In this document: positions 29,701 through 41,700 of the stretch, in pieces
Numbering within the stretch: position 1 is the stretch's first letter
Layout: each line of letters opens with the position of its first letter
Source: Anas platyrhynchos
Lineage: Eukaryota; Chordata; Aves; Anseriformes; Anatidae
Direction: 5' to 3'
NCBI RefSeq assembly: GCF_047663525.1
Contig: NC_092591.1
Location: 29,297,001 to 29,361,000, forward strand
DNA length: 64,000 nt
The notes under the pieces: model-generated
The model's database searches: none
Told to the model about the DNA's origin: nothing
What the model saw: only the letters and a program-made list of their open reading frames with translations
Position numbers and translations under genes: made by a program

Positions 29701-32700
29701 AGAGTTACAGCAGGAGCAGTGTGTGAGCCATTCCAAACAGCCTCTCAGCTGCCCTCTCTCCAGGGAAAGGGAGGGAAACTGCTCCAAGTCCCAGGGGTCA
29801 CTCTGTGACAGGGGGTCTCGCTCTAGGACAGGACCCCAGGGGTCAGGACAGGACAGACTAAGCCACCTCCTTCAGGACTGGGCTGTAGCTAGCCCTGGCA
29901 GGACAAGACCTTGTGGTCACCAGTTACAGGAGCACAGGCTGCTCAAACCAGCGTAAAAGATCCTGGAGACCAAACAACTGAACTAGCTCTGTGAAAGGCA
30001 AGACAAGACTCAATAGCCACAAAAGTTTGCTGACAAAGACAAAAGCAGCAGAGGCAGAGCCACACTGGACTCTCTTGCACAAACTAATTAGCATTATGAG
30101 AAGCCAAGCAGCACGTTCGAAGTGCCAGAGACCCTCATAATGGGTTCATCATGAGGCATCTAGGAAATCTCAGTAAGAACCTGTAAACAGATTCACTTCA
30201 CCTCAGTTAAACAAAGCAAAGGAAAGGACAAAGCAACGCAACAAGGGGAAAATATCACAGCGCTTAGCATAACGAACATAGGATCACCTCCATCTTCACC
30301 ACACTGCTGAGGAGCTGAGTGGAGCAGCATAGACAAGAGCCACCCAGCAGTGCTGCCACGACTCAGCCACAACCAAACATCCTTCCAATGGGTGAAGTTC
30401 TCCAGGCAAAATACACCATGAGGGAGCCATTCAAAACAAGGGTGCGAAGCCCAAAACCAGAAGTAAGAGAAAGCGAAACCATGTTCCACACAACCTCTGT
30501 CTGCACAAGCATGACCAATAAGAGGAGGGCAGTGTGTAGCACCTATGCCTGCAGCAGTATTTCACCCGCCAGGCAGAGCCCCGGGCTGCACAGCACAACA
30601 CAACCCACAAAAACATGACTGCAAGCAGCTGAGACTTACTTGTATACTGGCTTATGGACGCTCCTTCTCCTTCTGTCTGATTATCAGCCGCTACTGCAAA
30701 TACCGTGAAATTGTAGTTTGTCCCAGGGATTAACTCGGTAATTTCAGCTTTCTTGACATTTGAGGTCTCGTTCCAAAAAGAGGTACCATTTGCAACCTCT
30801 ATCCTATATGTGTAGGTGTCCGAAGCACTGTCGTTCACCTCCCACGTCAAGTTGACAGATGTCACACCAACATCCACTACCTGGAGATCATCAACTTTGC
30901 TGGGCCCTGGAAAGGCAAGAAAATAAACTGTCAAGACAGAGAAATACAGACAGTAGAAAAAACACAGCAACATTTTGCTATTTCACACAGATTAAGTGTT
31001 GACTGTAACCATTCAGCACTTGTCCAGTATCAATGCCCTGCTGCCAATATCCAGGGACATAAATGTATCTCAGGAAAGGACACAAATTTTGGAGGAGATT
31101 CTCTTTAGTTTATTTCACATGCTGAAATTACTTGTTTCCACAACAGCTTCCCAGACAGGTAAACGGAATTCAGGAAAGGAAGCAGAATGCTGGACAGTGT
31201 TGGTCTGTTAGTTCAAGACTGTGCCCGTGAGCATCTTAATCTGAGCTTCCCAGCACAGCCTCTCAGGGACACCAGAAGGAAACTTTGTAGGCAACAGTGG
31301 CCCGCAGTGCGGGGTCGAGGTTGGCAAGTCTAAAGCAGCACAAACACCGTGCAGACAAGACTCACCTTGGGCAGCTTAGACAAGCTCTGCTGAGTAGAAG
31401 CAGCTCCAGGACACGCTGCCCCTAATTGCTCTGTATATGGACGCTGCCTGTTCCCCTTCCACATCCTGAGCTCAACACAGAAGAAAGCTTTTCTTCCATC
31501 TGTCCCTCTGATCTGGGGAAAAGGTGCCAGAGCACAAAGCAGACAGAGCTGACACCACTCCTGATAACGAAGTCCTATGCAATGTCACAGCTCACAGAAG
31601 CCCTGGGCCATGGGCCTCTGCAGACAGCTCAAAACAAGCTTCAAGATCAGTAACTCTCTGTGATCCTGGGCACCGGATCCTTGCACACCACAGCCCCGCA
31701 TAAAACCTGATGACAACCTCGAGTCACTGTGTTCACCTCGAGTACTGTGTTCAGTTTTGGGCCCCTCGCTACAAGAAGGACATCGAGATGCTTGAGCGGG
31801 TCCAAAGAAGGGCGACGAAGTTGGTGAGGGGCCTGGAGAACAAGTCCTATGAGGAGCAGCTGAAGGAGCTGGGCTTGTTCAGCCTGGAGAAGAGGAGGCT
31901 CAGGGGCGACCTTATCACTCTCTACAGATACCTTAAAGGAGGCTGTAGTGAGGTGGGGGTTGGCCTGTTCTCCCACGTGCCTGGTGACAGGACGAGGGGG
32001 AATGGGCTAAAGTTACGCCAGGGGAGTTTTAGGTTAGATGTTAGGAAGAATTTCTTTACTGAAAGGGTTGTTAGGCACTGGAACGGGCTGCCCAGGGAGG
32101 TGGTGGAGTCACCATCCCTGGAAGTCTTCAAAAGACGTTTAGATGTAGAGCTTAGGGATATGGTTTAGTGGGGACTGTTAGTGTTAGGTTAGAGGTTGGA
32201 CTCGATGATCTTGAGGTCTCTTCCAACCTAGAGATTCTGTGATTCTGTGACAACCTGCACCAAGAGGTGCTGTATGGGGCCCATTCAGCCCTGATGTCCA
32301 GGCAAGGTCATGCTGTTGTAGCATCTGGATTTCTACATAGCTCATCAGCTTGGGCATTCAACAAGGCTAACTGCTCCACAGGCAGCTCTCACAGTCTCAG
32401 ACCTTTACCTTTTTAACAAGGACAGCCTGACATTCATGCCCACAGGAGCCTGGACTAAAGCAGCACAGCATTGCAAAACAGTAAGAAGTTGGAAATACAA
32501 GGAAAAAAAGCAAGGCTCTGTTACAAACTGCTTGTTTAGGCACTGCAGGTGAGAGGCACCGGTTCCTTACTTGTACACTGGCTTTTGGGCTCTCCTTCTC
32601 CTTCTGTCTGATTATCAGCCGCGACTGCAAATACCGTGAAATTGTAGTTTGTCCCTGGGATTAATCCGGTAATTTCGGCTTCTGTACCATTTGATGTCTC

Positions 32701-38700: not shown

Positions 38701-41700
38701 CCCGACTGCAAGCAGCTCAGACTTACTTGTATACTGACTTATGGACACTCCTTCTCCTTCTGTCTGATTATCAGCCGCTACTGCAAAAACCGTGAAACTG
38801 TAGTTTGTCCCTGGGATTAACCCGGTAATTTCGGCTTCTGTACCATTTGATGTCTCGTTCTTAACATTTGCAATCTCTATCCTGTACGTGTAGGGGTCCA
38901 AAGCATTGTCGTTCACCTTCCACTTCAATTTGACAGATGTCACACCAACATCCACTATCTGGAGATCATCAACTTTGCTGGGCCCTGGAAAGGCAAGACA
39001 ACAATCCATCAACCTCTAACAATATCTGATGACAATTGGGAAAAAACACACAAAAACACAGGCACGCCACTGCTTCACTCCCTTCATGCCACTCGTCATT
39101 CCGAGTGCAGGGGCACTCAGCAACAGCACCAGATGCTCCCAGAGGCTCATCCCTCAACAGGCCTGGAAGGCAAGATTAAGGAAAAGGCGTCTCCAGTGGG
39201 ATTCACCTCCCACTCACATTTAGAAGCAGGAGAAAAAACCAACACCGTGCCAGCACTCCTAGGGCTCCTCTTGGGAGCCCAGAGAGCTGTGCAGGAAGGA
39301 GACAAATGTGCGGGGAAAGGTGCCAAAGAAGAAGGTGGTGCTCCTCAGCACAGCCTGAGGTAAGGATGATAAATGACTACCGGAAGAGAAACAGAAATGA
39401 TCACCCAGGACCACCCTGCTCCTTTTCCACTGCTCAGGCCCCAACCTCACTCCAGGACAAGGAGAACAGTGAACACCTCCCCACAACCTCTCTGCGGCAC
39501 TCTGTTCTCTGTGCCTCTGCCAACTGTCAGTCACCAGTCATCACCCACAGGCAGCGTGGACAGATTCTGGGAATCAACGGCAAAGCCATGAGCACATTCA
39601 CACATGCATTTCTGGGCAACACAAATGACAAGAGCCACCATCGGTTTCCTTTGACATGCAGCATGGGGAAAGACCATGCTGTGCTACAGCCTCGCAGGCC
39701 AGCTCAAAAACTGGCCCTGCAACACCGTGCATCCAGACGTAGGACACCCAGCACAGCAAGGTGCTGAATGGCCAAGGCAGTTCTCCTCAACTAGTGCTGC
39801 TCAATTCTCGTGCTCCTGCTGCAGCCTGATGGCAGACACGGGACACAAATCACAGAAACTCCCCACGTGCGATCTGCTTTGTGCACGGGCGCATTGAAAA
39901 CAGGTGTCTAAGCCTAGGCTGTTAACATTTTTTTTTATAAAAATCTATTTTAATAGACTTTGACAAAAAATAATATGGAATTTCTCATGCAATTTAAAAA
40001 TTAAAAAAAATATTTTTTAGTCTCTTTCCCCTCCAAACTTAGGAAAGATAGGTTCTCAAGAAAAATCTCTATGCTGCAAGCTTTAGTGACTTTAGTTTCA
40101 CCAACTGCTTACTGTCAAGGTTATGCTTCTTCTGCATTCTAACCACCCACGCTTGGCATACAGCCCACATCAGGCTCCAGCACCAAAACATGCCCGCTGT
40201 CCACAGCCATACTGAACTACAAGCCTCACACAGCAAGGCAGAGACCCGAGCTGCACAGCACAACACAGCCCACCACAAACACGACTGCAAGCAGCTGAGA
40301 CTTACTTGTATACTGGCTTATGGACGCTCCTTCTCCTTCTGTCTGATTATCAGCCGCTACTGCAAATACCGTGAAACTGTAGTTTGTCCCTGGGATTAAC
40401 CCGGTAATTTCGGCTTCTGTACCATTTGATGTCTTGTACCAAACGGAGGCACCATTTGAAACCTCTATCCTATACGTGTAGTTGTCCGAAGTATTGTTGT
40501 TCACCTCCCACGTCAAGTTGACAGATGTCACACCAACATCCACTACCTGGAGATTATGAACTTTGCCGTGCTCTGGAAAGGCAAGAAAATATACTGTCAA
40601 GATAGAGAAATGCAGAGCGTGGAAAAACTATTGGATTTTCCTCAACCAATTTCTATTTTAATCAAGACATTCTTTTATGTTATATAGCATGATTGCTAGC
40701 TCTATGATCTTCCTCCAGCTCCTGAAGACTCACTTCATCTCAAAGATTAAAACTGTCTTGGTGCAACGGTGGTGACTTCCATACCTTACTTGTCAACTTT
40801 ATGCAAGCTGCTGAAAAAGAATTGCACATACAATTTATTTATTTATTTATTTTTCCCTGAGCTAGCTATCCTAAAGAGAAGATCTGCAAGATTCACAAAA
40901 CACTCCTCTAGATCCAGGTAGGTTATTTCAGCTGTACTCTATCACATATATATTTCAAATCTCTAGGTCTCATATTTGAACTGCTGCAGCTGTACTGTAA
41001 AAATTTGCCATAATCAGCAAGGAAGGGAACCCAAGTCTAATGATGATAAAACTATTTCAAGGCCATTCTACAATCACATTGTTCAGTTATACTATTAGTC
41101 AGTTGTGTAGATAATTTTTTTTTTTTTTGCTCATTCTCTACTTCAGTAAAGCAGTTGGATCCACTTCCTGCCACGATCCTTGCACTGTGAACTATAGTTC
41201 GGACTTAAAATGCTAACATAGGGTAAAAGCACAGAATACACTAAAGGTTCGCATCCCGGTGGCATTCCAAATCACTTACGTGTTGCATTGTTCTGATCAA
41301 CAGCTAGTGGCATGTCCCCTGATGATCTTTTGTTCCTACTTGGAGAGTTTACTGATAAATCATAATTACTACTGGGTCCCATTTCTGCAATTAAGTTTTT
41401 TGATCTGCAATCCTCAGTACCTGAAAGAAAAAAAAATACAAGGCAGTAAATATCTTTACAAAACTTCTGGATTCCCCATGTGAAAAAATACAGCCATTTA
41501 CAGATACCTTGCAGAGACCCAGCCTCCTCTGTTTTTTTAATCTGTTCTCCTACAGAGATTTTGTTGGACGTTTCCTGTTTTTACCACTTCTAACTTTTGT
41601 CAGACAATTTATGTTAGATTAAGAAATTGCCACATGGCTTCAGGTATTCAGTGACTCAACTCATAGTTTGAATGAAGGCTACCATGAGCTGCTCTGTACA

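What the first reader, a model, noticed from the sequence alone, without database searches (positions are those of the whole stretch)
30555..40627. Trimeric higher-order repeat of FN3 exons inside PTPRJ
Seven FN3 exons, all phase 1-1, sit in a unit of about 4.56 kb that holds three exons and three introns. Exons 1, 4 and 7 share the S-type upstream flank; exons 3 and 6 share the GEPKSQCT ending and gtaagg donor. The unit is duplicated with its introns, so the ectodomain has been lengthened by segmental duplication rather than by exon-only copying. Because every exon is in the same phase, copy number can change without breaking the frame, so individuals or species could differ in receptor length.
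Basis: seen in the sequence. Interest (0 to 1): 0.75.

Follow-up and report, generated by a model that had tools for sequence, protein, structure and literature searches.

The report
Self-homogenising repeat array in duck phosphatase receptor
The duck immune-cell receptor PTPRJ (CD148) has seven near-copies of one building block, apparently kept alike by repeated copying that is also seen in every bird species found and in some other vertebrates, and in the duck the introns between the blocks are more alike than the blocks themselves.

Summary
On the minus strand of mallard PTPRJ there are seven phase-1/1 FN3 exons at 30640-40572, with flanks and introns copied along at about 4.56-kb spacing. 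The interpretation needs changing in three ways. (1) It is not a clean trimeric higher-order repeat. The four S introns group as (i1,i5)|(i2,i4), by 38 sites against 2 for the pairing the repeat predicts. The first 957 bp of i1/i5 have 6 differences and the next 261 have 20, which looks like a conversion tract. (2) It is not a lineage-specific lengthening. All 115 bird species found carry 4-9 such domains. Self-similar PTPRJ FN3 arrays also occur in proteins of amphibians (4/4), turtle and lizards (5/7), fishes (14/47) and mammals (3/27). Bird copies mostly group by clade (concerted evolution), though mallard's own do not. (3) Around the two most alike intron pairs, exons are more divergent than introns even at synonymous sites (0.11-0.14 against 0.02-0.033; p=7e-6), so exon diversity looks older than the introns. 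Mallard and pintail are 329/330 identical in the adjacent FN3 region but about 80% in the array. Best reading: a continually turned-over FN3 rod with retained exon diversity. Population variation was not tested.

The parts
40573..40627 (-). upstream array limit: 55-bp repeat-type acceptor flank of F1, 89% to i3 and i6 3' ends
40306..40572 (-). F1, FN3 exon (phase 1-1), donor gtaagt
38985..40305 (-). i1, S-type intron, 1321 bp; groups with i5
38727..38984 (-). F2, FN3 exon, 9-bp shorter centre
37384..38726 (-). i2, S-type intron, 1343 bp; groups with i4
37126..37383 (-). F3, FN3 exon ending GEPKSQCT, donor gtaagg
35998..37125 (-). i3, L-type intron, 1128 bp; lacks the insertion of i6
35740..35997 (-). 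F4, FN3 exon
34423..35739 (-). i4, S-type intron, 1317 bp
34159..34422 (-). F5, FN3 exon
32838..34158 (-). i5, S-type intron, 1321 bp; first ~957 bp nearly identical to i1
32571..32837 (-). F6, FN3 exon ending GEPKSQCT, donor gtaagg
30907..32570 (-). i6, L-type intron, 1664 bp, with an inserted element
31720..32252 (+). CR1-like element (name recalled) with GACAACCT on both sides, absent at the matching place in i3: inserted after the L copies separated; ends approximate
   Evidence: sequence; related copies
30640..30906 (-). F7, FN3 exon, last of the array
30568..30639 (-). downstream array limit: 72-bp S-type donor flank, 90% to i1
28700..28975 (-). F8, FN3 exon outside the array (limits approximate)
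18444..18650 (-). open frame with PTP catalytic motif HCSAGVGRTG (exon limits approximate)

Best explanation
The array is the mallard state of a long-lived, continually turned-over run of FN3 exons in PTPRJ (CD148). Shown: each domain is a symmetric phase-1 exon embedded in homologous intron, and across birds the copies cluster by species or clade rather than by position (mallard and Aythya are exceptions at the species level). Inferred: misaligned recombination (unequal crossing-over and gene conversion between neighbouring units) adds, removes and overwrites units without breaking the frame. Shown: around the two most alike intron pairs of mallard, exons are more divergent than introns at synonymous and nonsynonymous sites alike, above all at codons 36-54 (end of strand C to strand E of the model). 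Inferred: selection removes exon-homogenising exchanges, or brings divergent exon variants in, while introns converge freely. Inferred function: the array is a glycosylated spacer rod that sets the height of the phosphatase for size-exclusion at cell contacts. Rod length and fold are constrained while the outer surface is free, or driven, to change.
For: Exons and flanks. Register conflict among S introns, 38:2:1. Conversion-like tract in i1/i5: 6 differences up to position 957, then 20 at positions 958-1218 (Fisher 1.5e-9 with the split chosen after looking; the longest span with at most 6 differences was not reached in 20,000 shuffles). Exon against intron: synonymous 15.7/112.8 and 13.0/114.8 against introns 37/1121 and 26/1245, p=7.2e-6 each. 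Array in 115 of 115 bird species found. Nearest neighbour in the same species for 538 of 732 domains, shuffled mean 5.6. Tree of 84 domains from 11 species: 22 species changes against 63.5 shuffled, while position labels need 65, no fewer than the five shuffles shown (59-62). FN3 fold, best solved match human PTPRJ FN3 domain 4 (2dle, 34% identity). Size exclusion and ligands of CD148: passages of PMC10815196. Codons 36-54 pS 0.202 and pN 0.217 against codons 55-81 0.108 and 0.037.
Against: The PHI test found no significant recombination among the seven exons (P=0.49) or the four S introns (P=0.25), though informative sites are few (30 and 41). Overall pN/pS is about 0.87 (0.107/0.123), so there is no proof of positive selection. 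Mallard copies do not cluster by species in the tree (6 changes against 6.8 shuffled, 101 of 500 as low), nor do Aythya's (5 against 5.9, 53 of 500), and they share exon types, so in ducks the exons are not strongly homogenised. HOR-register S-intron pairs show only a modest exon excess (synonymous p=0.047 and 0.0086). The tree has few columns, and 34 of 70 inner branches are open. DNA of one individual only. The spacer function is from mammalian literature.
Confidence: 0.72

Rival explanations
1. Plain lineage-specific segmental duplication: a 4.56-kb three-exon unit was duplicated in a duck ancestor, lengthening the receptor.
For: Three-exon spacing, shared flanks of F1/F4/F7 and shared donors of F3/F6. 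L introns i3/i6 differ by 3.3%. The two-GEPKSQCT order is shared by mallard and pintail, while the one Aythya isoform has one.
Against: S introns pair (i1,i5)|(i2,i4) 38:2:1 against the predicted register. Predicted partners i1-i4 and i2-i5 differ by about 6% after masking, against 3.3% for i3-i6. All 115 bird species found have arrays of 4-9.
Confidence: 0.12
2. Exon divergence is driven by positive selection alone: point changes in the outer face after a recent block duplication.
For: Nonsynonymous divergence exceeds flanking intron divergence (p=4.1e-7 and 1.9e-8). Change is concentrated at codons 1-54 and 82-88. PTPRJ lay in a selective sweep in chickens selected for heterophil/lymphocyte ratio (abstract and passages of PMC9938895).
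Against: Synonymous sites are as inflated as nonsynonymous ones (pS 0.123, pN 0.107). That is expected if whole exon segments are old, not if new amino-acid changes were selected.
Confidence: 0.13
3. Introns are under constraint or mutate slowly, so they only look young; exons evolve at the ordinary rate.
For: Not tested across species. Part of the contrast is CpG (i3-i6 falls to 2.39% without CpG sites).
Against: Intron pairs of the same type differ very unevenly: i1/i5 about 0.6% up to position 957, then 7.7% at 958-1218; i1-i5 2% against about 6% for the other S pairs. A uniform slow rate does not give this.
Confidence: 0.07
4. Assembly artefact: false duplication or haplotype mixing in the array.
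For: Near-identical repeats are hard to assemble. The predicted mallard isoforms each hold different subsets of exons. No reads were examined.
Against: All seven exons differ in sequence and only one L intron holds the insertion. The genome is in 42 contigs. A second mallard record (P0002) that differs from P0001 in its first exon, a 3-residue insertion and one residue after F8 has identical F1-F5 and F7. Arrays occur in every bird species found.
Confidence: 0.04

Closest known systems
PTPRJ / CD148 / DEP-1, R3 receptor tyrosine phosphatase
   Same: FN3 domains mostly in single phase-1/1 exons, larger juxtamembrane FN3, single PTP domain (PMC5336234 passages); F7 model best matches human PTPRJ FN3-4
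   Different: In 24 of 27 mammal proteins examined under 40% of windows pass the self-similarity test (23 have none); in the birds found the array copies are near-identical and turn over
Concerted evolution of tandem repeats within one gene (a general known process; recalled)
   Same: Copies cluster by species or clade, not by position
   Different: In mallard the most alike introns are more homogenised than the exons beside them, and mallard's own exons are not clustered by species
MHC/HLA-like pattern of old, diverse exons in homogenised introns (recalled, not tested here)
   Same: Both synonymous and nonsynonymous exon divergence exceed flanking intron divergence
   Different: Here the comparison is between repeated exons of one gene copy, not between alleles; no population data
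FN3 repeats of tenascins (PMC1578592; title and start of abstract in the listing only)
   Same: FN3 repeats in an extracellular protein; the paper contains both 'concerted evolution' and 'fibronectin type III'
   Different: Extracellular matrix protein, not a phosphatase; not compared in detail here

Membership tests
PTPRJ (R3 RPTP) | High identity to a PTPRJ record along its length | tested here: met
   100% (rounded) over the 761-aa query to Anas platyrhynchos 'receptor-type tyrosine-protein phosphatase eta' P0001
PTPRJ (R3 RPTP) | Single PTP domain | tested here: met
   Y_phosphatase hit in the window frame; one HCSAGVGRTG in P0001. The 53-aa fragment alone does not single out PTPRJ (ranks PTPRS first)
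PTPRJ (R3 RPTP) | FN3 domains in single phase 1-1 exons | tested here: met
   seven exons; Pfam fn3 E about 1e-11 for the two array exons tried, F1 and F3; F7 model of seven strands, pLDDT 90.5
Trimeric higher-order repeat | Exons 1/4/7, 2/5, 3/6 share flanks and spacing | tested here: met
Trimeric higher-order repeat | Each intron closest to its partner one unit away (i1-i4, i2-i5, i3-i6) | tested here: not met
   met for i3-i6; not met for S introns, 38 sites for (i1,i5)|(i2,i4) against 2
Concerted evolution | Copies cluster by species or clade rather than by position | tested here: met
   538 of 732 nearest neighbours in own species; 22 changes against 63.5 shuffled. Exceptions: mallard 6 against 6.8, Aythya 5 against 5.9
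Gene conversion | Bounded tract of near-identity inside diverged sequence | tested here: met
   i1/i5: 6 differences up to position 957, then 20 at 958-1218
Gene conversion | Statistical signal of recombination (PHI) | tested here: inconclusive
   P=0.49 exons, P=0.25 S introns
MHC-like balanced diversity | Excess synonymous and nonsynonymous divergence in exons over introns | tested here: met
   strong for two comparisons (p=7.2e-6), weak for two (p=0.047, 0.0086)
MHC-like balanced diversity | Allelic polymorphism shared across species | tested here: inconclusive
   Two A. zonorhyncha domains are 97-98% to pintail F7 while mallard F7 is 84% to it; another is 89% to mallard F4. One gene model only, no alleles
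MHC-like balanced diversity | dN/dS clearly above 1 at binding sites | tested here: not met
   codons 36-54 pN/pS 1.08, overall 0.87; binding sites are not known
Lineage-specific duplication | Absent from relatives | tested here: not met
   array in all 115 bird species found, 5 of 7 turtle/lizard and 4 of 4 amphibian proteins

The most novel reading that the evidence does not exclude
The CD148 ectodomain of birds is an MHC-like variable surface. Divergent exon and array haplotypes, differing in FN3 number and in the C'-E face, segregate within and across species and are kept by selection, while introns are homogenised by conversion. Ducks would then carry receptors of different height and surface, tuning phosphatase exclusion at immune contacts or escaping a microbial ligand.
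Probability: 0.25. Interest if true: 0.85.

Novelty: new variant of a known kind. Interest (0 to 1): 0.55.

Why it matters
CD148 tunes immune-cell signalling, and is thought to work partly by the size of its FN3 rod (PMC10815196 passages). If that rod is rebuilt by recombination in each bird lineage, receptor height and surface become natural variables that can be compared across many bird species. Orthology by position is also unsafe: alignments of bird PTPRJ ectodomains would compare non-orthologous domains and could mislead selection scans. The exon-older-than-intron pattern inside one gene offers a test of whether selection or chance opposes homogenisation.

Tried and rejected
Clean trimeric repeat: rejected by S-intron site patterns. 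Positive selection alone: made unlikely because synonymous sites are equally inflated. A second array elsewhere in the genome as conversion donor: none found, seven hits only (counts there are lower bounds). PHI recombination test: no signal. A simple effect of AT-rich tracts or CpG: masking lowers five of the six S-intron values and CpG removal lowers all seven intron values; the exon-intron tests were run on the AT-masked, not the CpG-free, values. Signal-peptide exon of mallard PTPRJ: not answered.

Literature searches for a prior description: PTPRJ, fibronectin type III, chicken; CD148, birds, fibronectin; concerted evolution, fibronectin type III, exon duplication; PTPRJ, positive selection, birds; PTPRJ, gene conversion; Ptprj, extracellular domain, rapidly evolving; concerted evolution, fibronectin type III; receptor-type tyrosine-protein phosphatase eta, birds; CD148, syndecan-2, fibronectin, ligand; 8 of 32 papers listed. 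By title and start of abstract none of those listed is about PTPRJ array turnover. Only passages of PMC5336234, PMC9938895, PMC7202016 and PMC10815196 were read. PMC1578592 (tenascins, 'concerted evolution') was seen in the listing and not opened.
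Full report
What is there. The window is the PTPRJ locus of a duck genome (G000: 1.26 Gb in 42 contigs, window at C5:29297001). The joined translation of the array plus the next two FN3 regions matches the record 'receptor-type tyrosine-protein phosphatase eta isoform X1 [Anas platyrhynchos]' at 100% rounded (P0001). The gene runs on the minus strand. Seven FN3 exons F1-F7 lie at 40572-30640, each phase 1-1 with clean splice sites. Pfam fn3 is hit at about 1e-11 by the two array exons tried, F1 and F3. 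The F7 model (AlphaFold2, pLDDT 90.5, from the seven window exons) has seven strands and its best solved match is human PTPRJ FN3 domain 4 (2dle, E 6.2e-7, 34% identity).

Geometry. Introns i1, i2, i4 and i5 are one type (S, 1317-1343 bp) and i3 and i6 another (L, 1128 and 1664 bp). i1 and i3 give no BLAST match. F1, F4 and F7 follow the L-type acceptor flank, and F3 and F6 use the L-type donor. The array ends within a 55-bp flank upstream and a 72-bp flank downstream. i6 carries an element resembling CR1 (name recalled) with GACAACCT on both sides, and i3 has the uninterrupted site. Hence the L copies existed before that insertion.

Not a clean trimer. If a three-exon unit had simply been duplicated, i1 should pair with i4 and i2 with i5. 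Site patterns in the four S introns give 38 for (i1,i5)|(i2,i4), 2 for (i1,i4)|(i2,i5) and 1 for (i1,i2)|(i4,i5). Of the 38, 22 lie in the second quarter, which holds an AT-rich stretch. After masking, i1-i5 differ by 2.1% and the other five S pairs by 5.8-6.3%. Along i1/i5 there are 6 differences up to position 957, 20 at positions 958-1218, and none listed beyond (Fisher 1.5e-9 with the split chosen after looking, and a span test not reached in 20,000 shuffles). This looks like a conversion tract. The PHI test was negative for exons (P=0.49) and introns (P=0.25), so conversion rests on the tract and the register conflict. Alternatively a block duplication followed by loss or gain of one monomer would give the same order. 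In the pintail protein the domain pairs F1/F5 (99%) and F3/F6 (100%) follow the same pairing as the mallard introns.

Exons older than introns. For F3/F6 and F4/F7 around i3/i6, synonymous divergence is 15.7/112.8, nonsynonymous 41.3/397.2, intron 37/1121. For F1/F5 and F2/F6 around i1/i5: 13.0/114.8, 35.0/401.2 and 26/1245. Synonymous against intron gives p=7.2e-6 in both. In the two HOR-register S comparisons the excess is weaker (p=0.047 and 0.0086). Sliding windows for these two blocks put most of the excess inside exons, with a further rise near the 3' end of i1/i5. Overall pS is 0.123 and pN 0.107; by region, codons 36-54 have pS 0.202 and pN 0.217, codons 55-81 pS 0.108 and pN 0.037. 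So this is not a dN>dS signal: whole exon segments are old or imported (inference). Consistent with this, three of seven mallard domains (F1, F3, F7) have as nearest neighbour a domain of another species, F5 and F6 tie at the printed rounding, and F2 and F4 are each other's nearest. The GEPKSQCT domains of mallard, pintail and Aythya form one group (support 97).

Other birds. Three protein searches gave 253 proteins. Each search listed only its best 120. Of 149 bird proteins from 115 species, the longest per species has 4 (1 species), 5 (12), 6 (52), 7 (38), 8 (10) or 9 (2) array domains. These are lower bounds, since isoforms, partial models and the length rule (1.75 times 761 aa) hide copies. 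In 732 domains from 114 species (the species with only four was dropped, as were domains covering under 70 profile positions), 538 have their nearest neighbour in the same species (shuffled mean 5.6, maximum 19.25); mean identity is 84.5% within species and 66.7% between. A tree of 84 domains from 11 chosen species needs 22 species changes (shuffled 63.5), while position labels need 65 (five of 50 shuffles shown: 59-62). Mallard (6 against 6.8) and Aythya (5 against 5.9) are not clustered, so in ducks exon types persist across genera. Mallard and pintail are 329/330 identical over the 330 residues after the array but their best-matching array domains average 80.0%. Of the 14 species pairs compared this is the sharpest contrast; emperor and king penguin show almost none (97.1% against 98.8%). 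The spot-billed duck model P0094 has two domains 97-98% like pintail F7 and one 89% like mallard F4. It is a single poor model that reads into introns.

Other vertebrates. By a window self-similarity test (at least 40% of 80-aa windows with a partner at 60% identity or more), arrays are homogeneous in 115 of 115 bird species, 4 of 4 amphibian, 5 of 7 turtle/lizard and 3 of 27 mammal proteins (ground squirrel, marmot, elephant), and in 14 of 47 fish/shark/lungfish proteins (12 of 42, 2 of 5 more). These are proteins, some from the same species, and a few of the fish ones are labelled only hypothetical or protein-tyrosine-phosphatase. Non-birds were found only if about 1365 aa or longer, which favours long arrays. 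I tested 85 of the 104 proteins new; the 19 left out are 13 labelled PTPRB, PTPRQ or PTPRH and 6 hypothetical or uncharacterised. No crocodilian was among the hits. The 16 bird entries were scored on the F8-to-C-terminus part alone and all 16 carry 7-9 array domains.

How it probably works. Shown: symmetric exons, homologous introns, different array sizes between species records, clade-wise clustering, exon divergence above intron divergence around two intron pairs. Inferred: misaligned recombination as the engine, and selection that spares exon diversity. Inferred from mammalian work: CD148 is predicted to have an extended FN3 ectodomain, is reported to be excluded from immune and phagocytic contacts by size, and has thrombospondin-1 and syndecan-2 as ligands (PMC10815196, passages). 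A rod needs fold and length more than sequence, which fits low nonsynonymous change at codons 55-81 and freer change elsewhere. Each mallard unit holds 4-7 N-glycosylation motifs. In chickens PTPRJ was tied to heterophil/lymphocyte ratio (PMC9938895, passages), and in Jianchang duck it is named among sweep genes (PMC7202016, passages). Neither concerns the array in the passages seen.

Known or new. Phase 1-1 FN3 exons and differing FN3 number in R3 phosphatases are published (PMC5336234, passages). Array homogenisation in PTPRJ and the exon-intron contrast did not appear in the nine searches listed in Tried and rejected; most subscription papers are not covered.

Noticed in passing
window 42137-41805 and 51543-51346 (minus strand): The mallard protein models start in two different non-leader-like exons (MCISFDE... 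and MVASAPT...), while swan records start with a leucine-rich leader (MRRLPRLLPCLLLL...); the true mallard signal-peptide exon may be outside the window or unannotated. A genome search for it did not complete.
   Followed up: partly
P0002, P0006, P0022, P0029: Predicted mallard isoforms lack F6, F6-F7, F4-F6 and F2-F4 in frame; receptor length may also vary by splicing, but these are predictions and reads may map ambiguously here.
   Followed up: partly
P0182 Loxodonta africana, P0157 Ictidomys, P0163 Marmota: Three mammal proteins have strongly self-similar PTPRJ FN3 arrays, while 23 of the other 24 show no qualifying window (rabbit P0176 is partial, 8 of 39); possibly independent re-amplification.
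   Followed up: partly
P0188 Lepisosteus (2789 aa), P0193 Acipenser (2221 aa), P0185 Rhinatrema (2338 aa): Very long proteins labelled PTPRJ or PTPRJ-like with highly self-similar FN3 arrays in gar, sturgeon and caecilian.
   Followed up: partly
window 14774-15050, 27798-28280, 43320-43693, 46950-47262: Other copies related to the element in i6, 71-84% identical to it.
   Followed up: no
P0094 Anas zonorhyncha: The gene model reads into sequence resembling mallard L-intron and i7 donor-flank translations; the i7-like stretch follows two different FN3 domains, hinting at an array order unlike mallard's.
   Followed up: partly
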